From positions 868,001 through 932,000 of the forward strand of contig NZ_CP126095.1 in the NCBI RefSeq assembly GCF_030123105.1: a stretch of DNA of 64,000 bases, written 5' to 3'. Within the stretch, counting starts at the first letter, position 1. Each line of letters begins with the position of its first letter. Source of the DNA: Paenibacillus sp. G2S3 (lineage in GTDB: Bacteria > Bacillota > Bacilli > Paenibacillales > Paenibacillaceae). Below, piece by piece: positions 37,150-49,863 of this stretch. A program made the position numbers and the translations under genes. Below the pieces are notes generated by a model, which ran no database searches, was not told the origin of the DNA, and saw nothing but the letters and a program-made list of their open reading frames with translations.

Positions 37150-38871
37150 CTAAGAAGACTTTCCTACAACGTTTGTTCCACTCTTCGTGATCTTGTACGT
37201 AAGGATATCACCATTCCAGAAGTGGAATTTCAGGATAACCTCTCCGTCTTTAACATCTTTAAAGAACGCTGGTAGCAGCTTGATTTCTTTCGTGTTATAA
37301 GAGGGAGAGAAGGTATTGCCGAACTCCTTGAATGGAGTCCAGTCCTGCGGGCCTGCATTGCCACCAGCGGTATAGACAGCCTCCATCGTGGCAAGCTGGT
37401 TACCGTTAAAGGTAGTTGGAATCGCAAACGATTCAGTCGTCCCTTTGGCATCGCTTAATTTGGCAGTGTCATTCACGATGATCTTTAGTCTCCACGCAAC
37501 ACCTTTGTTGAATTTCAGCGTTAGCACGGCATTTTCACCGTATTTTTGCGAAGCTGTGAGTTTTTTGAGTTGGCTGGCCTTGAGTGTGAGCTCCTCGCCA
37601 TTCAAGGTGTAATCTTTGCCCTTGGTTAAATATTTCCCATTTACACTAATCGTTGTTAGCTTATTGCCGTTTAGGTTCAGCTTCACCTTGGTGTCTTTGA
37701 TCGTTGCACCTTTTTTTAGATAGACCAGATCGCTCTCGGTGCTGGAGGAACGTTCCTTCAGACCAGACATTAATACGTTGTGGAGCTCGGAATCGGACCA
37801 CTTATACGTTTTGCGGTTGAAATGTTGCCCGTTATCCCAGAGCATGGAAGTCATTTTCTTTTCTTTTAAATAATAGGTAAGATACTCGAAGAATTTCAGT
37901 TTCTCGCCTTGTTCAATCACACCTGTGTCTTTATCGAAGCCCAGTAGTCCGAACTCACCGACGATGACAGGAATACCTTTAGCTACAAATGTGTTGTAAA
38001 CGTTATCAAAAGTTTGGATGATATCGTTTTTTGTATCTTTTTCAAACGTGGTGTAACCAGCGATATTCACACTGAACGGCCAGAAGCCATAGTAGTGAAC
38101 GGTCGCGATTATGTTCGGATCTTTAAGAGCTGTAATCGTCTTGTAAAGCTGATCCATTCTAGGTTGCGTAGGAGAAGTCTCTAATGAAGGTAGAACTAGC
38201 GGACGGACATCATTCTTTCCACCGGAGTTCCGAACGATCTGATGGAAGGAAGTGTTGAGCTCTGTAAGCATTTGCTCCATCTTCGCTTCATCGGTGCTTC
38301 CGCCATCTGTGAAGCGGGGTTCATTGATGCTTTCGAACATCAGCTTATCGGATTTATCCTTGAAGCGGTCCGCAATTTGAGTCCATGCTGCATTATAACG
38401 CGCCAGTGTCTCATCATGCTTCTCTTCTATATGACTTACCCATAACCAGGAGTCGTGATGGACGTTAATCATTACATATAACTTGGCGTCCAGCGCCCAG
38501 CCTACAACTTCTTCGACACGGTCGAGGTAAGCTTTTTCAATAGTGTAGTTCGGTGCTTCGCCTATGTGTGAATCCCAAGTGATAGGAATACGGATACTTT
38601 TGTAGCCTTGTGCGGCGATTTTCTTAATCAGTTCTTGGGTCACACGCGGATTGCCCCAGGAGGTTTCATCCTCACCTGTAGCATCTAGAGTATTGCCAAG
38701 GTTCCATCCGGGCTGCATATCGTCTACATAGGATTGGATCTTACTCTTTGGTGCTGCCTTAGCTTGTTGCTCGTCCTTAGTAGCAGCGGCGGCAATGGAT
38801 GAGAACAAAGAGAGCAGAAGAGCGGTGACAAGGGTCAATGATAAGAAGGATTTCTGGATTCGAGTAGTCAT
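37150..38871 (-). CDS. Secreted endoglucanase, GH5 + X2 + CBM46-like
   Basis: A 573-residue secreted protein. The signal peptide ends near residue 30 (AAA before TKDEQQ). The GH5 barrel (about 45-370) has GWNLGNTLDA, IRIPITWDSH, NVHHDSW, acid/base E184 (SINEPR), VHYYGFWPFS and nucleophile E306 (VIVGEFG), fitting subfamily 4 endo-beta-1,4-glucanases or xyloglucanases. Residues 382-468 are an X2/Ig-like module and 480-570 resemble CBM46, the layout of the Bacillus licheniformis tri-modular Cel5B. AAAGGAG precedes the ATG. A cre-like site lies about 100 bp upstream of the start, consistent with carbon catabolite repression. Confidence 0.93.
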   Translation of the reverse strand: MTTRIQKSFLSLTLVTALLLSLFSSIAAAATKDEQQAKAAPKSKIQSYVDDMQPGWNLGNTLDATGEDETSWGNPRVTQELIKKIAAQGYKSIRIPITWDSHIGEAPNYTIEKAYLDRVEEVVGWALDAKLYVMINVHHDSWLWVSHIEEKHDETLARYNAAWTQIADRFKDKSDKLMFESINEPRFTDGGSTDEAKMEQMLTELNTSFHQIVRNSGGKNDVRPLVLPSLETSPTQPRMDQLYKTITALKDPNIIATVHYYGFWPFSVNIAGYTTFEKDTKNDIIQTFDNVYNTFVAKGIPVIVGEFGLLGFDKDTGVIEQGEKLKFFEYLTYYLKEKKMTSMLWDNGQHFNRKTYKWSDSELHNVLMSGLKERSSSTESDLVYLKKGATIKDTKVKLNLNGNKLTTISVNGKYLTKGKDYTLNGEELTLKASQLKKLTASQKYGENAVLTLKFNKGVAWRLKIIVNDTAKLSDAKGTTESFAIPTTFNGNQLATMEAVYTAGGNAGPQDWTPFKEFGNTFSPSYNTKEIKLLPAFFKDVKDGEVILKFHFWNGDILTYKITKSGTNVVGKSS

Positions 38872-39716: not shown

Positions 39717-39745
39717 TTGCATGACAAAAGCAACTATATTAGATA
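39717..39745 (+). promoter_or_regulatory. Sigma-A promoter of the cobalamin operon
   Basis: TTGCAT (39717-39722) and TAGATA (39740-39745) are 17 nt apart, placed so that transcription would start just before the riboswitch. Confidence 0.55.
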
Positions 39746-39772
39746 TGATGAAGCATGAAAAAATTAATATTA

Positions 39773-39960
39773 GCAATAGGTGCCAATTATGAATGTTTCG
39801 GAGATACAATCATAGATTGGTTAAATGGAAAGCGGGTGTGAATCCCGCGCGGTCCCGCCGCTGTGAAAGAGGAATCCTTGCAAGGTACCACTGGGAAACT
39901 GGGAAGGTAGCAAGGGTGATGATACTTGAGCCAGAATATCTGCCTGTTTCTGATACACCA
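39773..39960 (+). ncRNA. Cobalamin (B12) riboswitch aptamer
   Basis: The conserved core GCGGTCCCGCCGCTGTGA (39849-39866), the preceding AAAGCGGGTGTGAATCCCGC arm, CCACTGGGAAACTGGGAAGG, GGTGATGA, and the B12 box GAGCCAGAATATCTGCCTG (39928-39946) occur in the right order and spacing. The family binds adenosyl- or other cobalamins and turns off B12 synthesis or uptake genes. Here it lies in a 480-nt leader of the surface-protein/ECF operon and is followed by an antiterminator/terminator pair. An open frame crossing it is not a gene. Confidence 0.93.
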
Positions 39961-39980
39961 TTAAACTCTACGAGCGATAG

Positions 39981-40063
39981 AGAGGTGTTTGATATAGTAT
40001 ATGCCTGCTATTGTTGCGGTTCACTATCTTAAACCTCTTGACGTTATGTTGAGTGGTTTTTTT
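39981..40063 (+). terminator. Riboswitch expression platform: antiterminator and terminator
   Basis: Terminator: AACCTCTTGAC (40032-40042) pairs with GTTGAGTGGTT (40048-40058), followed by T7. A competing stem joins AGAGGTGTTTGATATAGT (39981-39998) to ACTATCTTAAACCTCT (40023-40038), which uses part of the terminator's left arm. The two cannot form together, so B12 binding likely favours the terminator and ends transcription. Confidence 0.8.
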
Positions 40064-40139
40064 GTAGTGTTAAAAATATAAGAAAGTATAAGTTTAGCAT
40101 CTATACTCTATGTCTTATATTTCTCGCTAAACGCATACC

Positions 40140-40153
40140 GTCCTTATAAGGAC
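40140..40153 (+). other. Perfect 14-bp palindrome in the operon leader
   Basis: GTCCTTATAAGGAC lies between the riboswitch terminator and the first gene, with GTTTAGC/GCTAAAC (around 40091 and 40126) forming another stem just upstream. It may be a structural part of the 5' leader or a protein-binding site. The 40064-40225 stretch holds no gene. Confidence 0.4.
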
Positions 40154-40225
40154 GCCGAGGGCGTTATGCTTGGAAAGTTTATTCTGTTTTTTAACATAGG
40201 AAGAGAAGGGAAGGGTTATGGAAAC

Positions 40226-43200
40226 ATGAAGAAAAATAAGTTTTTAGCTTGGTTACTTATTGTAGCAGTATTTATCACGACGTTCTCTACAAGTATAATC
40301 CCGGCTCATGCGAATGAAGCAATTGCTGATAGTGCAGTTGTAAGAACAGAGGTTGATCAAGCTCTACTAGAGCAGATTAATGCGCTAGTACAAGAGCCAG
40401 ATACAGAGAAGCCTACTATTTCAATAGAAGGTATACAAGATAAACAGGAAGTATCCAGTAAAGATGTAAGCTTCAAAGTAGTGGTTACAGACAATGTTTA
40501 TAAAGACATTATACCAGTAGTAAAGCTGAACCAAGTCGTTCTGACAGCTACTAATGGTGAGTACAAAGCATCTCTAAACCCAGGTAGTAACGTAATCGCA
40601 GTAACAGCTATAGATGGCGCAGGAAACAAAGCAGATAATGTAACCTATCAGGTTACTTATAAAATCACTGCTAAAGAACAGTTAGATAAAAGCTTGGCCT
40701 ACATCGTTAACACCGTAAAGAATCCGTCATTTGGAACAGGTAGCGGAGAATGGTCGATTCTTTCTCTAGCACGTGCGAACTACAAGGTTCCTAACGGTTA
40801 TTACAATCTCTATTACAACAATGTAGCAACGCGAATAGCAACGATAATTAAGGATGGAAAACTCGACGCTAATAAAAGCACAGAGAATTCCAGAGCAATT
40901 CTAGGACTGACCTCTATCGGAAAAGATATCACGAATGTTGCAGGTCATGATCTAAGAAATGCACTCGCTGATTATCAATATATTCAGAAGCAAGGGAACA
41001 ACGGTCCCATATTTGCTCTGATTGCACTAGATAGTCATAACTATGACATTCCAGTATTATTCCCTGATCCTGATGAGAAGGGAGTAATATATCAAAGCAC
41101 AAGAGAAAACCTGGTTCAGTACATCTTAGATAGAGAAGTTAAAAAAGGTGCAGCAGATGCCGGGGGCTGGGCTTTAGGTGTAACCAAAGCCGACGTCGAT
41201 ATGACCGGGATGGCGATGCAAGCACTTGCGCCTTATTACGCAAAGGATTCTAATGTAAAAGCTGCCGTGGATCGGGCGATTACATGGTTATCGAGTGTAC
41301 AAAATGCTCAAGGTGGATTTACAAGCTGGGGAAGCACAAGCAGTGAGAGCATCGCACAGGTTGTTGTTGCCTTAACTGGCGTAGGTGTAGACCCGCACAG
41401 TGACCCTAGGTTTATTAAAGAAGGAAATTCACTTATAGATGCTTTACTTAGCTTCTCTGGGCCGGATGGTGGATTCAAGCATATTCTCACCGGAAAAGTA
41501 GACGCTATGGCTACGGATCAAGGTACATATGCACTCGTATCCTATGATCGTCTGATCAATAATAGCAACCGTCTCTATGACATGAATGATGTTCAATTAG
41601 AGCAGCCGGAAGTGCCGACTTCAGATGTAGCCAAGCTACATTTGGATAAGAGCCTTGCCTATCTTGTTAAAACCGTAACGAATCCGACCTATTTCGGAGA
41701 GTGGTCCATTCTTTCTTTAGCACGTGCAAACTACGATGTGCCTAATGGTTATTATGATCTCTATTACAACAATATAGCTACGAAAGTAGCAGCCTTAATA
41801 AAGGATGGAAAACTCGATACTACTGTAAGTACAGAGTATTCCAGATTGATTTTAGGACTTACCTCTATTGGAAAAGATATCACTAATGTCGCGGGGTATG
41901 ATCTGAGAAAAACGCTTGCTGATTATCAATACATTCAGAAGCAAGGAAATAATGGTCCTATATTTGCTCTGATTGCGCTAGATAGTCATAACTATGATAT
42001 TCCCGTAGCGCCAGCAGGTAAAGTTCAAACCACAAGAGAAAACCTGATTCAGTATATTTTAGATAATGAGATTAAAAAGGGTACAGTAGAAGCCGGTGGT
42101 TGGGCATTAGGTACGGCGAAAGCCGATGTCGATATGACTGCTATGGCAATACAAGCACTTGCACCTTATTACGCAAAGGATTCTAATGTAAAAGCTGCCG
42201 TAGATCGGGCCATTCTATGGTTATCAATTAATCAAAATAATGATGGTAGTTATACAAGCTGGGGAAGCACAAGTAGTGAAAGCATCTCGCAAGTTATTGT
42301 TGCTTTAACTAGCGTAGGTGTAAACCCAGACAATGATGTTAGGTTTATCAAGAATGGCAAGTCCCTTATTGATGCATTACTTGCCTTTGCTGCACCTGAT
42401 GGTGGATTTAAGCACACCTTAACAGGATCAGTAAATGGAATGGCTACGGATCAAGGTACGTATGCACTCGTATCTTATGATCGTCTGCTTAAGGATAGTA
42501 ACCGTCTCTTTGATATGAATGATGTGAAATTGGAACAACCAGAAGGACCGGGACCTGGGCAACCAGAGGGTCCAAAAGAACTTCCTTTACCGTCTGGTGA
42601 TAACCCAAAAGTTGATATCCCAAATGACTCTCAAGATTATATCGTTCCGATCAGCACAGGAGATAGCAACAAGGAAATAACGGTAGTTATTCCTAAAGAC
42701 CAACAATCGAAAGTTAGTGTTAGTTTACCTAGTAACAGCGACCTTCCTCAGATAGAGGCTACCAAAGGTGACGTATCTGTAGTCATTCCTAAGGGTGCAA
42801 AAGTTACCAGTGGAGATGCCTCAGCGATTGAACTGATGTCACCTTTAACAGGCACAGAAGCTGCACTAAAAGATAGTCTGAATCAGATTATTTCCCAGGA
42901 TAAGAAGCTGGAGAGCATTATTCAAGCGTTTTCCATGGGTGGCAGCGCAAGAGTAGAATTTAGTCAATTTATAACATTAACCTTTAAGGACCTTAAAGGA
43001 AAAGATGCAGCTTATATTCAAGAGGGTACACCTCATGCGATTCAAAAATTTGCAAGTGATGACTTAGGCATTGCGAGCGGCAAGTCTGAGTATGCCTTTG
43101 ATAGTGGAAATGACTTAATCGTAAAAACCAATCACTTCACTGATTACATTGCGTACACATCCAGTGTAGTTCAGACACCTGGTGGCGACGGTGGTAGTGG

Positions 43201-45202
43201 CAATGGTGAAGGAAATGGCGGTGGCAATGGTGGAGGAACTACTCCATCGAAGCAATATGTAACCCTATCCGTGGATAAGCTTACGATTAAGAAGGGATAC
43301 GTTGTTCCATCTGTACAGGTAGAGCTACAATCTGGTGACACAGTGTGGTCTTTATTCGAAAGAGTACTAGATAGCCGCGGTATCGACTATAGATATTCTT
43401 GGAACAGTACATTTGGAAGTGTGTATGTTGAATCCATAGCTGGTGATGGAGAATTTGACCATGGTAGCGGTAGTGGCTGGATGTATAATGTGAACGGAGT
43501 TTATCCTAATTATGGTGCATCTTCATATAACCTAAGTGCCGGGGATAGAATTCAGTGGCGTTATACTACGAATTTGGGTGTGGATCTAAATGCACCGATA
43601 CCAACAGCGAGTCCGACTCCAAAACCAACACCTAAACCTAGCGGTACTCCTGCTCCGGGTGATGTAACTATTCCGGAAGGTAACGGTAATCCGACAGCGA
43701 GTCCATCTCCAACAGCGACTCCTAATGATATCAAGCAAGTGTATAAAGACGCCGATAAGATCTCATCATGGGCGTTCTCAGCGATTGAAACAGCTACAGT
43801 AAAAGGGTACATCCAAGGTAACAATGGTCAGGTGAATCCGAAGGATTACATTACAAAAGCAGAATTTACTAAGATCCTAGTATCAGCATTGGAACTGGAT
43901 ACCAAGAGTGACAAAGGCATTACCTATAAGGATGTAGCTCTGGGAGATTGGTTCTATCCATATGTGAATGCTGCTCATAAAGCAGGGTTAATTACAGGCT
44001 TTAATAATGAATTTAAGCCAAATGACAAGATTACTCGCGAGCAAATGGCAGCCATAATCGTCAGAGCATTATCAATCCCGGCTACGAAGCCAGGGACAGC
44101 CATTAAAGATATCAATACCGCGTCCGCGTGGGCAAAAGCAGATGTGGAAACCATTGTTGCCACCGGACTTATGTTAGGCGATAATAATCAGTTTAAGCCT
44201 AAAGAGCTTGTAACTAGAGAAATGGCAGCTGTGGTAGCTACTAGAACCCATGATTATAAGAGTGGCGACAAAGCAGTTAGTCCATATATTCAAAACACAG
44301 CAGCCTTTTTGCAAAAAACAGTAACAAACCCGGTCATCGCCTCGGTTGGCGGGGATTGGACAGTGTTTGGGCTGGCACGTTCTGGTGTGAAGGTTCCAGA
44401 TAGTTATTACGCTAAGTACTATGCGAATGTAGAAGCAACCCTTAAAGAAAAAGCTGGGAAGCTGCATAGCGTAAAATATACGGAATATGATAGAGTTATT
44501 TTGGCATTAACTTCAATCGGTAAAAATATTGATAAAGTGGCGGGTTATAACCTACTGGAACCGCTCGCGGATTTTGATACTGTAATCAAGCAAGGTATTA
44601 ATGGACCTGTGTTTGCCTTGATTGCACTGGATAGTAATCATTACGACATTCCAGTGGTTAAGGATGTTAAGACGCAGACAACAAGAGAGATGCTCATTGA
44701 TTACATTTTGGGCAGAGAGATCAACGGTGGCGGATGGGCACTAGGCAGTAATGCTACTGCGGCCGATCCGGATATCACTGGGATGGTTATTCAAAGCTTG
44801 ACCCCTTATTACAAAACGAATGCCAAAGTAACGGCTGCTGTGGATCGTGGAATTGCTTGGTTATCCAAAACGCAAACAGCAGACGGAGGTTATGCAAGCT
44901 GGGAGTCTACGAACTCCGAAAGCATTGCTCAGGTGATCGTAGCTTTAGCTGGCCTTGGTATAGATCCGCATAAGGATTCCAGATTCATTAAAAATGGCCG
45001 ATCAGCGGTAGATGCGTTGCTTGGCTTTGCTGCACCTGAAGGTGGCTTCTATCACGTGAAGCAGGGTGGAGTAGGTAACGGGGGCGCGAAACCCGGAGAA
45101 GTAGATCTTATGGCTACGGATCAAGCGATGTATGCAACGGTCGCTTATGATCGGCTGGTTAAGGGTCAGACGAGTCTTTATGACATGAAAGACGTTAAAT
45201 AG
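40226..45202 (+). CDS. Surface transcobalamin-like protein: three toroid domains, DUF4430, SLH anchors
   Basis: A 1658-residue exported protein; the ATG at 40226 begins a clear signal peptide (cleaved after AHA, about residue 29), and the upstream in-frame ATG at 40166 would spoil it. Order: Ig-like domain (59-152); toroid 1 (152-457); toroid 2 (470-769); beta domain (789-982); Gly-rich linker; DUF4430 (1007-1122, GSGWMYNVNGVYPNYG); Pro/Thr linker; three SLH domains (1170-1345); toroid 3 (1352-1658). Each toroid is the size of a transcobalamin alpha domain, with NNGPIFALIALDSHNYDIP and GGWALG..DVDMTGMAMQALAPYY; the latter resembles the animal B12-binding-protein signature around VDT. DUF4430 is like the transcobalamin C-terminal domain. 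Under riboswitch control and followed by an ECF importer, it probably captures B12 at the cell wall. Confidence 0.88.
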   Translation: MKKNKFLAWLLIVAVFITTFSTSIIPAHANEAIADSAVVRTEVDQALLEQINALVQEPDTEKPTISIEGIQDKQEVSSKDVSFKVVVTDNVYKDIIPVVKLNQVVLTATNGEYKASLNPGSNVIAVTAIDGAGNKADNVTYQVTYKITAKEQLDKSLAYIVNTVKNPSFGTGSGEWSILSLARANYKVPNGYYNLYYNNVATRIATIIKDGKLDANKSTENSRAILGLTSIGKDITNVAGHDLRNALADYQYIQKQGNNGPIFALIALDSHNYDIPVLFPDPDEKGVIYQSTRENLVQYILDREVKKGAADAGGWALGVTKADVDMTGMAMQALAPYYAKDSNVKAAVDRAITWLSSVQNAQGGFTSWGSTSSESIAQVVVALTGVGVDPHSDPRFIKEGNSLIDALLSFSGPDGGFKHILTGKVDAMATDQGTYALVSYDRLINNSNRLYDMNDVQLEQPEVPTSDVAKLHLDKSLAYLVKTVTNPTYFGEWSILSLARANYDVPNGYYDLYYNNIATKVAALIKDGKLDTTVSTEYSRLILGLTSIGKDITNVAGYDLRKTLADYQYIQKQGNNGPIFALIALDSHNYDIPVAPAGKVQTTRENLIQYILDNEIKKGTVEAGGWALGTAKADVDMTAMAIQALAPYYAKDSNVKAAVDRAILWLSINQNNDGSYTSWGSTSSESISQVIVALTSVGVNPDNDVRFIKNGKSLIDALLAFAAPDGGFKHTLTGSVNGMATDQGTYALVSYDRLLKDSNRLFDMNDVKLEQPEGPGPGQPEGPKELPLPSGDNPKVDIPNDSQDYIVPISTGDSNKEITVVIPKDQQSKVSVSLPSNSDLPQIEATKGDVSVVIPKGAKVTSGDASAIELMSPLTGTEAALKDSLNQIISQDKKLESIIQAFSMGGSARVEFSQFITLTFKDLKGKDAAYIQEGTPHAIQKFASDDLGIASGKSEYAFDSGNDLIVKTNHFTDYIAYTSSVVQTPGGDGGSGNGEGNGGGNGGGTTPSKQYVTLSVDKLTIKKGYVVPSVQVELQSGDTVWSLFERVLDSRGIDYRYSWNSTFGSVYVESIAGDGEFDHGSGSGWMYNVNGVYPNYGASSYNLSAGDRIQWRYTTNLGVDLNAPIPTASPTPKPTPKPSGTPAPGDVTIPEGNGNPTASPSPTATPNDIKQVYKDADKISSWAFSAIETATVKGYIQGNNGQVNPKDYITKAEFTKILVSALELDTKSDKGITYKDVALGDWFYPYVNAAHKAGLITGFNNEFKPNDKITREQMAAIIVRALSIPATKPGTAIKDINTASAWAKADVETIVATGLMLGDNNQFKPKELVTREMAAVVATRTHDYKSGDKAVSPYIQNTAAFLQKTVTNPVIASVGGDWTVFGLARSGVKVPDSYYAKYYANVEATLKEKAGKLHSVKYTEYDRVILALTSIGKNIDKVAGYNLLEPLADFDTVIKQGINGPVFALIALDSNHYDIPVVKDVKTQTTREMLIDYILGREINGGGWALGSNATAADPDITGMVIQSLTPYYKTNAKVTAAVDRGIAWLSKTQTADGGYASWESTNSESIAQVIVALAGLGIDPHKDSRFIKNGRSAVDALLGFAAPEGGFYHVKQGGVGNGGAKPGEVDLMATDQAMYATVAYDRLVKGQTSLYDMKDVK
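40679..42530 (+). repeat. Tandem internal duplication (toroids 1 and 2)
   Basis: The segment at about 40679-41596 is repeated at 41635-42530 with high DNA identity. For example, a stretch of about 45 nt ending in CTGCCGTGGATCGGGC in copy 1 recurs nearly unchanged in copy 2 (around 41230 and 42160). Toroid 3 (44278-45199) matches at protein level but much less at DNA level, so the 1/2 duplication is more recent. Confidence 0.85.
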
Positions 45203-45218
45203 AACTTTATTTAAAGAG

Positions 45219-45256
45219 ATAAGCAAGGGTAGCATGTATACCCTTGCTTATTATTT
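45219..45256 (+). terminator. Intraoperon terminator-like hairpin
   Basis: ATAAGCAAGGGTA (45219-45231) and TACCCTTGCTTAT (45239-45251) form a perfect 13-bp stem followed by TATTT. It lies between the surface-protein gene and the rest of the operon. The short U-tract suggests partial termination, so the surface protein would be made in excess of the transporter. Confidence 0.7.
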
Positions 45257-45275
45257 AAGGTGGGGAACTTAAGAA

Positions 45276-46244
45276 ATGAATAAGAAAAAATGGCTAACAG
45301 CGATACTAATTATTGGTGTGTTGGCGATTGCCTTCTTTTGGGGCGGGAATTATCAGAAGAGCCCGAACAAGGTTGCAAGTAACAATGTTGAATCTCAAGT
45401 TGTAGAATCAGCCAATACGGCTTCCAATCAGAATGTTGATGTAGAGCCTACAACCTCAAGTGATGCAGAGACAACGGAGATAGCTCCTACAGCTACACCT
45501 GATGAAACAGCTAAGCCTGTTGAAACGGTAAAACCAACAGAAGAGGTAACGCCAACCGAAACTGCGGTAACAGAGGTTGAAAAGCCGACCGCAACACCTA
45601 AATCGGATACACAGGCACAACCGACCGCAACACCGAAAGCGGCTAAAACATCCGTGCCGGAAACGAAAGCGACGGCAAAACCAGTAACCAAACCGGATTC
45701 AAAAGTAGCGACAACAGAAACCAAGCAGGAACCGAAAAAGGATAAATTCCTTACCGATCCAGTGCCGAGCGGGAAACCTAAGCCCGTGGAATGGCAAGAT
45801 GCAACGGTAGATAAGAAGAAGCAATTAACGGCTACTTTGTCTGTGTCGGCAGCAACGATTTTAGATAATATGGATATTTTCAATAAGGATAAGGTTGAAG
45901 TATTGCCTGCAGATGGTATCATTTATAAAGCGCAGAAGGTAACCTTTTATGAAGGGGAGTCTGTGTTTGATGTTTTGCTAAGAGAGATGAAGAAGAATAA
46001 AATCCATATGGAATTCAGCATGACCCCGATCTATAACAGTAATTATATTGAAGGCATAAATAATCTGTATGAATTTGATGCTGGAGAGCTCAGTGGATGG
46101 ATGTACAAAGTAAATGGCTGGTTCCCTAACTATGGCAGCAGTCGTTATGTGCTTAAGGACGGCGATGTCGTTGAATGGGTATACACCTGTGATTTAGGTC
46201 GAGATGTAGGTGGTTATGTAGCCACAGGAGGAGCACAGAAATAA
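45276..46244 (+). CDS. Membrane-anchored DUF4430 protein
   Basis: A 322-residue protein. A single N-terminal membrane helix (residues 6-23, no lipobox) is followed by a long Thr/Pro/Glu/Lys-rich linker (about 30-165) that could cross the cell wall, then a DUF4430 domain (185-315). The domain carries VTFYEGESVFDVLLREM, LSGWMYKVNGWFPNYGSSRY and GDVVEWVYTCDLGRD. It has no toroid, unlike its upstream neighbour. In this operon it may receive B12 from the wall-bound protein and hand it to the ECF transporter. The stop overlaps the start of the T-component gene (TAATG). Confidence 0.88.
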   Translation: MNKKKWLTAILIIGVLAIAFFWGGNYQKSPNKVASNNVESQVVESANTASNQNVDVEPTTSSDAETTEIAPTATPDETAKPVETVKPTEEVTPTETAVTEVEKPTATPKSDTQAQPTATPKAAKTSVPETKATAKPVTKPDSKVATTETKQEPKKDKFLTDPVPSGKPKPVEWQDATVDKKKQLTATLSVSAATILDNMDIFNKDKVEVLPADGIIYKAQKVTFYEGESVFDVLLREMKKNKIHMEFSMTPIYNSNYIEGINNLYEFDAGELSGWMYKVNGWFPNYGSSRYVLKDGDVVEWVYTCDLGRDVGGYVATGGAQK

Positions 46245-47134
46245 TGAAGGATAGCTTTTCTACCTTTCATCCGTTTGTGAATTTTCTTTATTTTGTTGTT
46301 GTGTTGTTATTTAGCATGGTGTTCATGCATCCCATATTTCAGGTGATTGCCCTTATCAGTGCAGTGGTCTACTCCTTTATGTTAAAAGGCAAGAAAGCCG
46401 TTCGATTTAATCTGCTGTACATGGTTCCGTTTCTACTATTTATGGCGATTATGAACCCTGTTTTTAATCATCAAGGGGTAACGATCTTGTTCTATTTGCA
46501 CAATGGAAATCCCATTACGAAGGAATCCATTCTTTATGGCATAGCAGCGGCGTGCATGTTTGTGACGGTAATCATATGGTTCTCCTGTTATAACGTTGTG
46601 ATGACCTCGGATAAGTTTATTTATATATTCGGAAAAATACTGCCGGCACTGTCGTTGATTTTTTCGATGGTGCTTCGTTTTGTTCCTAGATATTTAGCGC
46701 AAATCAAGGTAATTTCGAATGCTCAAAAATGTATTGGCCGGGATGTCACGCAGGGAAATCTCCTCGCGCGAGCGCGGAATGGGATTACGATCCTATCGAT
46801 AATGACCACCTGGGCCCTGGAAAATGCGATTGAGACGGCGGATTCCATGAAGTCAAGAGGATATGGATTGCCTGGACGTACAAGCTTTTCGATCTTCCGT
46901 CTAGATGCCCGGGACAAAGTAGCCCTTTTGATCATGACAGGCTTAATTACGATGGTAGCCGTCGGCGCAGCGATGGGTGAGAACACGATGAGATATTATC
47001 CGTCGATTAAAGCGAGCGCAATTACACCTTTTAGTATCCTTGTATATATCGCTTATTTTGCGCTATGTATGATCCCTGTGCTCATCAATATGGTGGAGGC
47101 AATGAAATGGAAATCTATCGAATCGAAGAACTAA
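46244..47134 (+). CDS. ecfT: ECF transporter transmembrane (T) component, CbiQ/EcfT family
   Basis: A 296-residue protein with five to six membrane helices. The cytoplasmic coupling region contains ENAIETADSMKSRGYG and related Arg-Gly motifs that join EcfT to the ATPases. It couples ATP hydrolysis to toppling of the S component. Overlaps on both sides (TAATG with the DUF4430 gene, 28 bp with the ATPase gene) show a tightly coupled operon. Confidence 0.9.
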   Translation: MKDSFSTFHPFVNFLYFVVVLLFSMVFMHPIFQVIALISAVVYSFMLKGKKAVRFNLLYMVPFLLFMAIMNPVFNHQGVTILFYLHNGNPITKESILYGIAAACMFVTVIIWFSCYNVVMTSDKFIYIFGKILPALSLIFSMVLRFVPRYLAQIKVISNAQKCIGRDVTQGNLLARARNGITILSIMTTWALENAIETADSMKSRGYGLPGRTSFSIFRLDARDKVALLIMTGLITMVAVGAAMGENTMRYYPSIKASAITPFSILVYIAYFALCMIPVLINMVEAMKWKSIESKN

Positions 47135-48777
47135 GCTTTGCTTTTCCTGAACAAGAGCAGATGGCTCTTTCGAATATTAATCTTACGATTGCAAGCGGAG
47201 ACTTTGTTACTGTTTGTGGAAAGTCAGGCTGCGGCAAAAGTACCTTACTAAGACAACTGAAAACAATCCTAACCCCACATGGCAAACGCCAAGGGGCGAT
47301 TTATTATAAGGGTCAACCTGTAGAGGAGATCGATCAACGGACACAAGCAGCGGAAATCGGTTATGTACTCCAAAGTCCGGACAATCAAATTGTGACAGAC
47401 AAGGTGTGGCATGAGCTGGCTTTTGGTCTTGAAAGCTTAGGTTATGACAATTCTACGATTCGTTTGCGCGTGGCTGAGATGGCGAGCTTTTTCGGAATTC
47501 AGACCTGGTTCCATAAAAGTGTGACTGAGCTATCGGGTGGCCAGAAGCAGCTACTCAATTTAGCGGCGATTATGGCTATGCATCCCTCGGTTCTAATCCT
47601 TGATGAGCCTACCTCTCAGTTAGATCCTATCGCGGCTTCCGATTTTTTGGAGACGGTTAAAAAGATTAATCGCGAGCTTGGAACAACCGTTATCATGACC
47701 GAGCATCGTCTAGAGGATGTTCTTCCGCTTACAGATCGGCTGATTGTGCTGAATGAGGGCATCGTGATTGCTGATGATACCCCGCAAAGGGTTGGAGAAG
47801 CTCTAAGCAAGCTGAACCATCCGATGTTTCTGTCCATGCCCTCACCGATGCAAATTTACGCAGGCGTAGAGAATGACTTAGCATGGCCTGTTACAGTAAA
47901 GGAAGGACGCCAATGGTTGGATGCTTTTCTAGAGGATAAGACACCTGCAACGATCGCGGAATCTCCGCCAAGCACGAAAGAGGACGGCCCAGTAGTCATA
48001 AAGTTCAAGGATGTATGGTTTAAATATGATAAGCACGGACCGGATATTATTAAAGATTTGTCCTTTGAAGTGAAGCAGGGACAGTTCTATTGCATTGTTG
48101 GTGGAAACGGAACGGGCAAGACATCGACGCTGTCGCTAATGAGCGGCATTCTTCAGCCCTATAGAGGCAAAGTTCAAATTGGCGGGAACAACCCTGCGAA
48201 GATGAATGCCAAAGAACTGTTTACTAACAATCTGGGCATCCTCCCGCAAAATCCGCAAACCTTATTTGTGAAGAAAACAGTCGAGTTAGATTTATACGAA
48301 ATGTTATCCCAGCTCCCTTTAACGAAGGAAGAAAAGACGGCTAAAGTTGAGGCCGTGGTTAAGTTCGCAGAACTGGAACATCTTCTCTCCATGCATCCGT
48401 ATGATCTTAGCGGGGGAGAACAGCAGCGGGCGGCGCTGGCTAAGGTGCTTTTGTTAGAACCAAAGATTCTGCTGCTGGATGAACCGACTAAAGGATTGGA
48501 TGGACCTTTTAAGGAGAAACTCGCTTTATTCCTACAGAAGCTTATTGCCGATGGTGTTACCATCGTAATGGTCTCGCATGATGTTGAATTCTGTGCCAAA
48601 TACGCGGAAGTTTGCGCGATGTTCTTTGATGGAAGTATCATCACTACGAATGAAGCCCAGAAGTTTTTTGCGGGAAACAGCTTCTATACGACTGCCGCCA
48701 ACCGTATGGCGCGTCATGTATGGAGCGAGGGAGTAACGATAGAGGGTGTGATTGCTTTATGTCAACGAAGCAGGTAA
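47107..48777 (+). CDS. ECF transporter ATPase, fused A-A' subunits
   Basis: A 556-residue protein with two complete ABC ATPase domains in one chain. The first has Walker A CGKSGCGKST (near residue 40), LSGGQKQL and LILDEPTSQLD; the second has GGNGTGKTS (near 333), LSGGEQQR and LLLDEPTKGLD. An ATG at 47065 is less likely; GGTGGAGG precedes the ATG at 47107. Most Bacillota ECF systems encode A and A' separately and share them among S components; a fused, operon-dedicated pair indicates a group I (dedicated) transporter. It overlaps ecfT and the S-component gene. Confidence 0.92.
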   Translation: MEIYRIEELSFAFPEQEQMALSNINLTIASGDFVTVCGKSGCGKSTLLRQLKTILTPHGKRQGAIYYKGQPVEEIDQRTQAAEIGYVLQSPDNQIVTDKVWHELAFGLESLGYDNSTIRLRVAEMASFFGIQTWFHKSVTELSGGQKQLLNLAAIMAMHPSVLILDEPTSQLDPIAASDFLETVKKINRELGTTVIMTEHRLEDVLPLTDRLIVLNEGIVIADDTPQRVGEALSKLNHPMFLSMPSPMQIYAGVENDLAWPVTVKEGRQWLDAFLEDKTPATIAESPPSTKEDGPVVIKFKDVWFKYDKHGPDIIKDLSFEVKQGQFYCIVGGNGTGKTSTLSLMSGILQPYRGKVQIGGNNPAKMNAKELFTNNLGILPQNPQTLFVKKTVELDLYEMLSQLPLTKEEKTAKVEAVVKFAELEHLLSMHPYDLSGGEQQRAALAKVLLLEPKILLLDEPTKGLDGPFKEKLALFLQKLIADGVTIVMVSHDVEFCAKYAEVCAMFFDGSIITTNEAQKFFAGNSFYTTAANRMARHVWSEGVTIEGVIALCQRSR

Positions 48778-49487
48778 CAGGTCGTCGTTTGAGTCGTCGA
48801 ACTTTATTAGCGGGACTACTAATCTTTATAGTTATTCCAGCTACAATTTTGTTAGGTATCTTTGTCCTAGACGATCGCAAATATTACTTTATTAGTCTCT
48901 TGATCGTCCTCTATACGATGATTCCGTTTGCGATGGTGTTCGAGAATCGGAAGCCGCAGGCGAGGGAACTGATTGTCATAGCGGTGCTAGCAGCGATTGC
49001 CGTTGCTGGACGTGCAGCCTTTTTCATGTTGCCGCAGTTTAAGCCGGTGGTTGCTATAGTAATCATCGCAGGTGTGAGTTTGGGTGCTGAGGCAGGATTT
49101 CTGGTGGGTGCTGTTGCGGGCTTCGTCTCCAATTTCTTCTTTGGGCAGGGACCTTGGACGCCTTGGCAAATGTTTTGTTTTGGCATCATTGGCTTCCTGG
49201 CGGGTATTTTCTTCAAGAAAGGTCTGCTTAAAAAGACTAAGCTATCGCTGTGTATATTCGGAGGGCTAGCGACATTCTTGGTATATGGTGGCATTATCAA
49301 TATAGGCTCGCTGATGATGTTCACTTCAGAGTTCTCATGGTCGGCTTTGATGACGACTTATGTTTCCGCCTTTTGGTTTGATATGGTGCATGCGATTTCG
49401 ACGGTGGTGTTTTTGTTTTTTATTGCTCATCCTATGATTGAGAAGTTGGATCGGATAAAAACGAAGTATGGGTTGATTGAGCCTTAG
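48759..49487 (+). CDS. ECF transporter substrate-binding (S) component, probable cobalamin
   Basis: A 242-residue membrane protein with about six helices. Motifs such as AVLAAIAVAGRAAFFMLPQFKPVVA, GVSLGAEAGFLVGAVAGFVSNFFFGQGPWTPWQM and GFLAGIFF are typical of ECF S components. The ATG at 48759 is used; the upstream ATG at 48720 lies within the ATPase gene. It overlaps the ATPase gene by 19 bp. Because the operon has a cobalamin riboswitch, B12 (CbrT-like role) is the most likely substrate, though no B12-binding residues can be verified by eye. Confidence 0.85.
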   Translation: MSTKQVTGRRLSRRTLLAGLLIFIVIPATILLGIFVLDDRKYYFISLLIVLYTMIPFAMVFENRKPQARELIVIAVLAAIAVAGRAAFFMLPQFKPVVAIVIIAGVSLGAEAGFLVGAVAGFVSNFFFGQGPWTPWQMFCFGIIGFLAGIFFKKGLLKKTKLSLCIFGGLATFLVYGGIINIGSLMMFTSEFSWSALMTTYVSAFWFDMVHAISTVVFLFFIAHPMIEKLDRIKTKYGLIEP

Positions 49488-49819: not shown

Positions 49820-49863
49820 AAAAAACAGGCGATGCTCCGGTCTACCGGTATCGCCTGTTTTTT
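49820..49863. terminator. Bidirectional rho-independent terminator
   Basis: AAAAAACAGGCGAT (49820-49833) and ATCGCCTGTTTTTT (49850-49863) pair perfectly, with an inner CCGG/CCGG stem. It ends the minus-strand kinase gene and can stop transcription from the left. Confidence 0.9.

What the first reader, a model, noticed from the sequence alone, without database searches (positions are those of the whole stretch)
39717..49487. Riboswitch-controlled, transcobalamin-like B12 capture and ECF import operon
A cobalamin riboswitch with terminator precedes, in one run of coupled genes, a wall-anchored protein with transcobalamin-sized toroid domains plus DUF4430, a membrane-anchored DUF4430 protein, and a full ECF transporter (T, fused A-A', S). 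Animal transcobalamin, intrinsic factor and haptocorrin are made of the same two parts: an alpha6/alpha6 toroid and a small beta domain that clamp B12 between them. The cluster therefore suggests a Gram-positive relay: wall capture, hand-over by the anchored DUF4430 protein, then ECF import. Seen: gene order, riboswitch, domains. Known: riboswitch and ECF families, transcobalamin fold. Inferred: B12 binding by the surface proteins. I know of no characterised bacterial system of this design, but cannot search.
Basis: partly seen in the sequence, partly recalled or inferred. Interest (0 to 1): 0.93.

Follow-up and report, generated by a model that had tools for sequence, protein, structure and literature searches.

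The report
Transcobalamin-like vitamin B12 import operon
A Paenibacillus-type bacterium carries a vitamin B12-controlled set of genes that pairs surface proteins resembling parts of our own B12-carrying proteins with a membrane importer for the vitamin, a design predicted in 2007 for which I found no bench test.

Summary

Seven of 47 genomes gave no toroid match, so DUF4430 plus S looks like the core.

The idea is not new: Burroughs et al. 2007 predicted B12 scavenging by such operons and transfer to animals. Added here: riboswitch link, CbrT-type S pairing, split-chain layout, with counts.

The parts
39761..39961 (+). Cobalamin riboswitch aptamer (RF00174)
   Evidence: 97.3 bits against gathering 31.5, full model 1-189; found again in the own-genome search. 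Model R1 also finds it, but it was among the sequences R1 was built from.
39980..40039 (+). Antiterminator that can pair with the 5' arm of the terminator
   Evidence: ViennaRNA -17.5 kcal/mol for 39978-40045; role inferred
40031..40063 (+). Intrinsic terminator of the riboswitch (hairpin plus seven T)
   Evidence: -9.8 kcal/mol; leader 39955-40075 z-score -2.49; not listed by the consensus scan
40226..45202 (+). Gene 1: secreted, SLH-bearing multi-toroid/DUF4430 surface protein, 1658 aa
40691..41530 (+). Toroid T1 of gene 1 (alpha/alpha toroid, terpene cyclase/TED class)
   Evidence: session profile E 1.8e-121 (the profile was seeded with this toroid); Pfam SQHop_cyclase_C; 77.5% identical to T2
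41651..42463 (+). Toroid T2 of gene 1
   Evidence: session profile E 2.8e-121
42464..43294 (+). Unclassified 277-aa stretch between T2 and DUF4430, aligned with the same stretch of 28 relatives
   Evidence: no Pfam family over cut-off; alignment A2, whose rows were chosen for this spacing
43295..43588 (+). DUF4430 (transcobalamin-beta-like) domain of gene 1
   Evidence: Pfam PF14478 8.2e-19; session profile 1.5e-39; not modelled itself
43766..44245 (+). Three SLH domains of gene 1 (wall anchor)
   Evidence: PF00395 6.5e-29; match to solved SLH domains of S-layer protein Sap; two PF04230 pyruvyl-transferase matches in the genome
44297..45133 (+). Toroid T3 of gene 1, counterpart of the stand-alone SLH-toroid protein of relatives
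   Evidence: 77.8% mean identity to 7 stand-alone SLH-toroid proteins, 56.6-57.6% to T1 and T2
45276..46244 (+). Gene 2: membrane-anchored DUF4430 protein, 322 aa
   Evidence: PF14478 3.7e-18; N-terminal hydrophobic anchor read from sequence
45915..46211 (+). DUF4430 (transcobalamin-beta-like) domain of gene 2
   Evidence: AlphaFold2 model of window 45774-46241, pLDDT 87.8; best structural matches haptocorrin, intrinsic factor, transcobalamin
46244..47134 (+). ECF T component (CbiQ/EcfT family)
   Evidence: PF02361 3.1e-8
47107..48777 (+). ECF fused ATPases A-A'
   Evidence: two ABC_tran stretches; NCBIfam TIGR04520 4.4e-108
48759..49487 (+). ECF S component, CbrT-like (cobalamin)
   Evidence: PDB 6fnp_A 1.6e-13 alone, 7.9e-15 as profile; next PDB chain 4hzu_S 0.034. 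6fnp_A is labelled only Membrane protein (182 aa); taken as CbrT because 6FNP is the ECF-CbrT entry
49820..49863 (.). Possible terminator after the operon, shared with the convergent gene
   Evidence: inverted repeat with A and T tracts, read from sequence, not scored

Best explanation
A B12-repressed corrinoid capture and import operon. When adenosylcobalamin is scarce the riboswitch lets transcription pass the terminator. The SLH protein displays toroids and a transcobalamin-beta-like DUF4430 domain in the wall and traps B12. The membrane-anchored DUF4430 protein, the steady partner of the S component, receives B12, most likely closing on it together with a toroid of the wall protein as a split transcobalamin, and passes it to the CbrT-like S component. 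T and A-A' then drive import. Shown here: riboswitch, gene order and its conservation, fold of the gene 2 DUF4430 domain, S-component kinship, B12-dependent enzymes without CbiC. Inferred: B12 binding by DUF4430 and toroids, joint clamping, hand-over, direction of flow.
Against: No binding data. Toroid profiles do not reach transcobalamin, and no cobalamin-carrier family is among the 23 Pfam families listed for either toroid set (52 and 37 members). Four DUF4430 genomes showed no B12 riboswitch (G049, G058, G095, G124), and in G095 and G058 the DUF4430-S pair sits in a carboxylase-type gene row (Pfam run on G095 proteins only), so some members may carry another ligand. In PMC5997447 CbrT imports B12 apparently without CbrS, a name that occurs once in the text, so extra surface proteins need not be essential. 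Lack of CbiC alone does not prove lack of all B12 synthesis. The gene 1 DUF4430 domain was not modelled.
Confidence: 0.82

Rival explanations
1. Cobalt importer: CbiO/CbiQ-like parts bring in Co2+ and the surface proteins bind metal.
For: T matches Pfam CbiQ and the ATPases match cobalt-transporter models; a solved DUF4430 relative, 3u7z, is labelled putative metal binding protein; cobalt importers also follow B12 riboswitches (PMC11477304, passages).
Against: The S component is CbrT-like; no CbiC match in the genome, so imported cobalt would have little use in B12 synthesis; DUF4430 has the B12-carrier beta fold.
Confidence: 0.05
2. The importer is for B12, but the surface proteins do not bind it: DUF4430 and toroid domains act as wall-binding or spacer modules, co-regulated only.
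For: CbrT imports B12 apparently without such partners in the published assay (PMC5997447, passages); toroids look like terpene cyclase or TED domains by sequence; DUF4430 occurs in 4 of 47 genomes without any B12 riboswitch found.
Against: Near-perfect pairing of DUF4430 with this S type (45 of 47 against 0 of 102); fold shared specifically with B12 carriers; the human beta domain binds B12 alone; strong conservation of the gene 2 domain (partly a selection effect).
Confidence: 0.12
3. The ligand is a corrinoid precursor or another cobamide (for example cobinamide) rather than cobalamin.
For: CbrT and transcobalamin beta both bind cobinamide (PMC5997447; PMC5599065).
Against: Nothing here tells cobamides apart; completing enzymes were not searched.
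Confidence: 0.2
4. Riboflavin or folate ECF transporter mis-assigned to B12.
For: Pfam ECF-ribofla_trS 42.7 bits, over its cut-off; NCBIfam riboflavin and folate hits below cut-off.
Against: B12 riboswitch and no other Rfam match in the window; the PDB profile ranks 6FNP at 7.9e-15 and the next chain (4hzu_S) at 0.034.
Confidence: 0.02

Closest known systems
SLBB transcobalamin-like clade operons (Burroughs, Balaji, Iyer, Aravind 2007, PMC1796856; abstract and passages seen)
   Same: Toroid-SLBB(DUF4430) surface proteins, often a second paralogous SLBB gene, with CbiO-like ATPase and CbiQ-like membrane genes in low-GC Gram-positives usually lacking key B12 synthesis enzymes; B12 scavenging predicted; toroid-SLBB version said to have passed to animals.
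   Different: The word riboswitch does not occur in that text and I saw no S component in the passages read; here riboswitch control, CbrT-type S, SLH anchoring, three toroids and the separate-chain layout are added, with counts.
ECF-CbrT of Lactobacillus delbrueckii (Santos et al. 2018, PMC5997447, PDB 6FNP; passages seen)
   Same: B12-type S component with T, A and A'.
   Different: The window has its own fused A-A' and T and co-encoded surface proteins. The Lactobacillus cluster is nrdJ-cbrS-cbrT-pduO; whether CbrS is a DUF4430 protein was not tested.
Animal transcobalamin, intrinsic factor, haptocorrin
   Different: Bacterial toroids did not match transcobalamin by sequence; toroid and beta domain are on separate chains or 277 aa apart; wall and membrane anchors.
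BtuG of gut Bacteroides (PMC6143338, passages seen)
   Same: Surface-exposed capture of B12 ahead of a membrane transporter.
   Different: Surface lipoprotein working with BtuB in Gram-negatives; no kinship claimed or tested here.

Membership tests
Cobalamin riboswitch RF00174 | Covariance-model score over the curated cut-off | tested here: met
   97.3 bits against 31.5
Cobalamin riboswitch RF00174 | Binds adenosylcobalamin and switches expression | not testable with these tools
   terminator and antiterminator are only folded
ECF transporter with its own module | T, A, A' and S encoded together | tested here: met
   found together with a toroid gene in 68 of 80 loci
CbrT-type cobalamin S component | Sequence kinship to CbrT above other S components | tested here: met
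   6fnp_A 1.6e-13 single, 7.9e-15 profile, next 4hzu_S 0.034
CbrT-type cobalamin S component | Cobalamin binding and transport | not testable with these tools
   needs assay
SLBB, transcobalamin-like clade (DUF4430) | Beta-grasp fold with beta-hairpin inserted after the helix | tested here: met
   gene 2 model has helix 64-74 followed by strands 79-84 and 89-95 before strand 108-113 (my reading of the list); fold matches; definition from PMC1796856
Transcobalamin / intrinsic factor / haptocorrin | Beta domain homologous to the animal carriers | tested here: met
Transcobalamin / intrinsic factor / haptocorrin | Alpha6/alpha6 toroid homologous to the carriers' alpha domain | tested here: inconclusive
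Transcobalamin / intrinsic factor / haptocorrin | Toroid followed by beta domain in one chain | tested here: inconclusive
   window T2 and DUF4430 are in one chain but 277 aa apart; in the paralogue L010 they are adjacent (T 73-314, D 350-442)
Transcobalamin / intrinsic factor / haptocorrin | Very tight cobalamin binding between the two domains | not testable with these tools
   needs binding assay

The most novel reading that the evidence does not exclude
Bacillota use a split transcobalamin: a wall-anchored toroid and a separate membrane-anchored beta domain close around B12 between them, and the beta-domain protein docks on the CbrT-like S component, making this an ECF transporter with its own extracellular substrate-binding proteins and the likely source of the animal B12 carriers.
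Probability: 0.4. Interest if true: 0.88.

Novelty: new variant of a known kind. Interest (0 to 1): 0.72.

Why it matters
B12 uptake by many Gram-positives has no assigned transporter; one survey of twelve subsurface isolates, a Paenibacillus among them, found no CbrT in any genome and said other entry routes must exist (PMC10378866, abstract start and passages). DUF4430 with this S type was found in 45 of 149 sampled genomes of the phylum, so the operon type is a strong and widespread candidate. ECF S-components usually take their vitamin directly (general knowledge), so dedicated extracellular partners would be a new feature of that transporter class, and a working bacterial transcobalamin would make the 2007 proposal of a bacterial origin for animal B12 carriers directly testable.

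Tried and rejected
A loose regular-expression search for B12 boxes over 90 loci gave many false positives and was dropped; replaced by Rfam on 31 of the 80 relatives and the session model R1 on all 80 plus the window. PDB searches with gene 2 alone and with the narrow profile A1 did not find transcobalamin; only the wide profile A6 did, and there unrelated chains begin at E 0.019, ahead of intrinsic factor (0.28). Toroid profiles A4 and A7 and Pfam scans of their members did not single out transcobalamin. Cobalt and riboflavin readings were rejected on S-component kinship. Literature: ten searches listed no bench study of a bacterial DUF4430 or toroid-DUF4430 protein with B12, judged from titles and abstract starts plus passages of the ten papers opened; the library lacks most subscription journals, and Rodionov et al. 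2009 was not held, so absence is not proven.

Limits of the counts: the RF00174 listing was cut, so 28 of the 47 DUF4430 genomes were searched again; for the other 19 only hits seen (for G000) on the relevant contigs were entered, so the downstream (3 of 47) and opposite-strand (1 of 47) controls at 5 kb are lower bounds. The 0.4 expectation assumes at least 4 riboswitches and 2 DUF4430 clusters per 2.6 Mb genome. The 80 loci are the best of 261 confirmed and were picked by similarity to gene 2, which also favours high conservation of gene 2. Profile A5 was built from S genes beside DUF4430, so the 45-against-0 result (E below 1e-10; 46 against 3 at 0.001) concerns that S subfamily. Some of the 7 genomes without a toroid match are fragmented assemblies.
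Full report
WHAT IS THERE. The window lies at 868001-932000 of a one-contig 6.70 Mb genome. The closest named gene 2 relative listed is from Paenibacillus odorifer, 98% identical. A cobalamin riboswitch at 39761-39961 is followed by a terminator and an alternative antiterminator helix, then five genes on the same strand with a 73-base gap and overlaps of 1, 28 and 19 bases. Gene 1 is a secreted protein with two toroids, a 277-aa unclassified stretch, a DUF4430 domain, three SLH domains and a third toroid. Gene 2 is an N-terminally anchored DUF4430 protein; a lipobox-like motif was found in only 2 of 80 relatives. Genes 3-5 are ECF T, fused A-A' and S.

CONSERVATION. Of 261 confirmed relatives of gene 2 the best 80 were kept, from Paenibacillus, Cohnella and many clostridial records. 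In these, a toroid gene adjoins gene 2 in 76, T is present in 76, A-A' in 76, S in 72, all four in 68, and a B12 riboswitch lies on the same strand within the up to 10 kb held upstream in 63 (L087 comes from Rfam; L072 and L080 are weak at 30.7 and 24.5 bits). Of the 17 without one, 5 hold under 3 kb upstream. With Rfam itself 31 of the 80 were searched: by my reading have a same-strand B12 riboswitch ahead of the operon, one is ambiguous (L062) and 7 have none ahead of it (L046, L050, L054, L064, L067, L076, L086). In 38 relatives the SLH and toroid unit is a separate ORF of about 540-620 aa (31 toroid-SLH, 7 SLH-toroid); the window's T3 is on average 77.8% identical to the toroids of the 7 stand-alone SLH-toroid proteins, 50.4% to those of the 31 toroid-SLH proteins, and about 57% to T1 and T2, which are 77.5% identical to each other. 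So gene 1 reads as a fusion of a toroid-toroid-DUF4430 protein with an SLH-toroid protein. In 24 of 80 loci A, A' and S lie in one ORF. Distances of gene 2, S and T across 68 loci correlate (Mantel r 0.67-0.86, permuted maximum 0.22), and the gene 2 domain is the most conserved part (82.7% mean identity against 69.5% for S and 61.4% for T), partly because the loci were chosen by gene 2.

SURVEY NOT CHOSEN BY GENE 2. In 149 genomes drawn evenly from the phylum, 47 have DUF4430 and 141 have a B12 riboswitch. Among the 47, 36 have a same-strand riboswitch within 5 kb upstream of DUF4430 and 37 within 8 kb; about 0.4 would be expected. Of the 10 without one at 8 kb, four genomes showed none at all (G049, G058, G095, G124), in three the DUF4430 genes sit near a contig start (G072, G115, G127), one has only a sub-threshold match (G063), and two have none near (G026, G129). 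The CbrT-like S type (profile A5, E below 1e-10) is in 45 of 47 DUF4430 genomes and 0 of 102 others; at E 0.001 it is 46 of 47 and 3 of 102. In 39 of the 45 it lies within 8 kb downstream on the same strand. A toroid match is in 40 of 47, near DUF4430 in 39. Hence DUF4430 plus S looks like the core and the toroid a frequent partner. G014 shows a riboswitch, a DUF4430 gene and a 167-aa membrane protein of S-component size that no Pfam family recognises.

SUBSTRATE. The S component matches chain 6fnp_A at 1.6e-13 and as a profile at 7.9e-15, with the next PDB chain (4hzu_S) at 0.034; 6FNP is the ECF-CbrT entry. The genome has a Met_synt_B12 match in a 1175-aa frame that ends in a normal stop, an NrdJ match over its cut-off and a cobalamin adenosyltransferase match, and none to CbiC. 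Its other two B12 riboswitches precede a metE-like gene and an nrd cluster (named by eye). This fits an organism that uses B12 enzymes when B12 can be imported, and this operon is the only transport locus behind its three riboswitches.

HOW IT PROBABLY WORKS. Human transcobalamin beta domain binds B12 alone, and separately expressed alpha and beta domains join only when B12 is present (PMC5599065, abstract and passages). The bacterial layout, with a toroid on the wall protein and a beta domain on a membrane protein, is what such ligand-driven assembly would need. I therefore favour a split clamp that delivers B12 to S. That step, like binding itself, is inference.

WHAT IS KNOWN. Burroughs et al. 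2007 (abstract and passages read) described this domain superfamily, its fusion to toroids, the CbiO/CbiQ operons, the usual lack of key B12 synthesis enzymes in carriers, the likely B12 scavenging role, and transfer to animals. UniRef already labels some orthologues Transcobalamin-like C-terminal. ECF-CbrT was characterised in 2018 (PMC5997447, passages). BtuG shows surface capture of B12 in Bacteroides (PMC6143338, passages). The riboswitch link, the S-component pairing and the split layout I did not see in the passages and listings of my ten searches.

Noticed in passing
L010 6602-9181 (G000:C1:1043601-1046180): A paralogue with one toroid and three DUF4430 domains has no B12 riboswitch in this genome, while the same gene in the sister genome G020 has one (1035539-1035741). 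The surrounding DNA aligns at 79%; the aptamer is missing in G000 and a terminator-like hairpin with T-rich tail remains, so this copy seems to have left B12 control.
   Followed up: partly
L094 4535-5412, L095 3982-4883 (genomes G095, G058): A small DUF4430 gene directly before a short S-component gene sits between a lactate-racemase-like gene and an SDR-like gene on one side and a biotin carrier and an oxaloacetate-decarboxylase beta subunit on the other, with no B12 riboswitch found in the genome; possible other ligand or constitutive B12 supply (Pfam on L094 only).
   Followed up: partly
L099 3603-4798 (genome G014): Small form: B12 riboswitch, 134-aa DUF4430 protein, 167-aa membrane protein without a Pfam family; no toroid match in the genome.
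   Followed up: partly
L100 1250-6463 (genome G122): A riboswitch-led 1222-aa DUF4430 protein and a 434-aa toroid protein, both with Cu_amine_oxidN1 domains, without a match to this S component in the genome.
   Followed up: partly
L049 14349-18257 and the same region of L056, L057, L071: A second, convergent surface gene with DUF4430 and SLH domains under its own B12 riboswitch beside the operon.
   Followed up: no
24 of the 80 loci, e.g. L049 11766-14261: A, A' and S in one ORF, a full A-A'-S fusion of an ECF transporter.
   Followed up: no
L012 3667-4557: The T component is split over two ORFs in this draft assembly; broken gene or sequence error. Not mended.
   Followed up: no
37150-38871 (-): GH5 cellulase with CBM_X2 and CBM46 domains upstream of the operon.
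   Followed up: no
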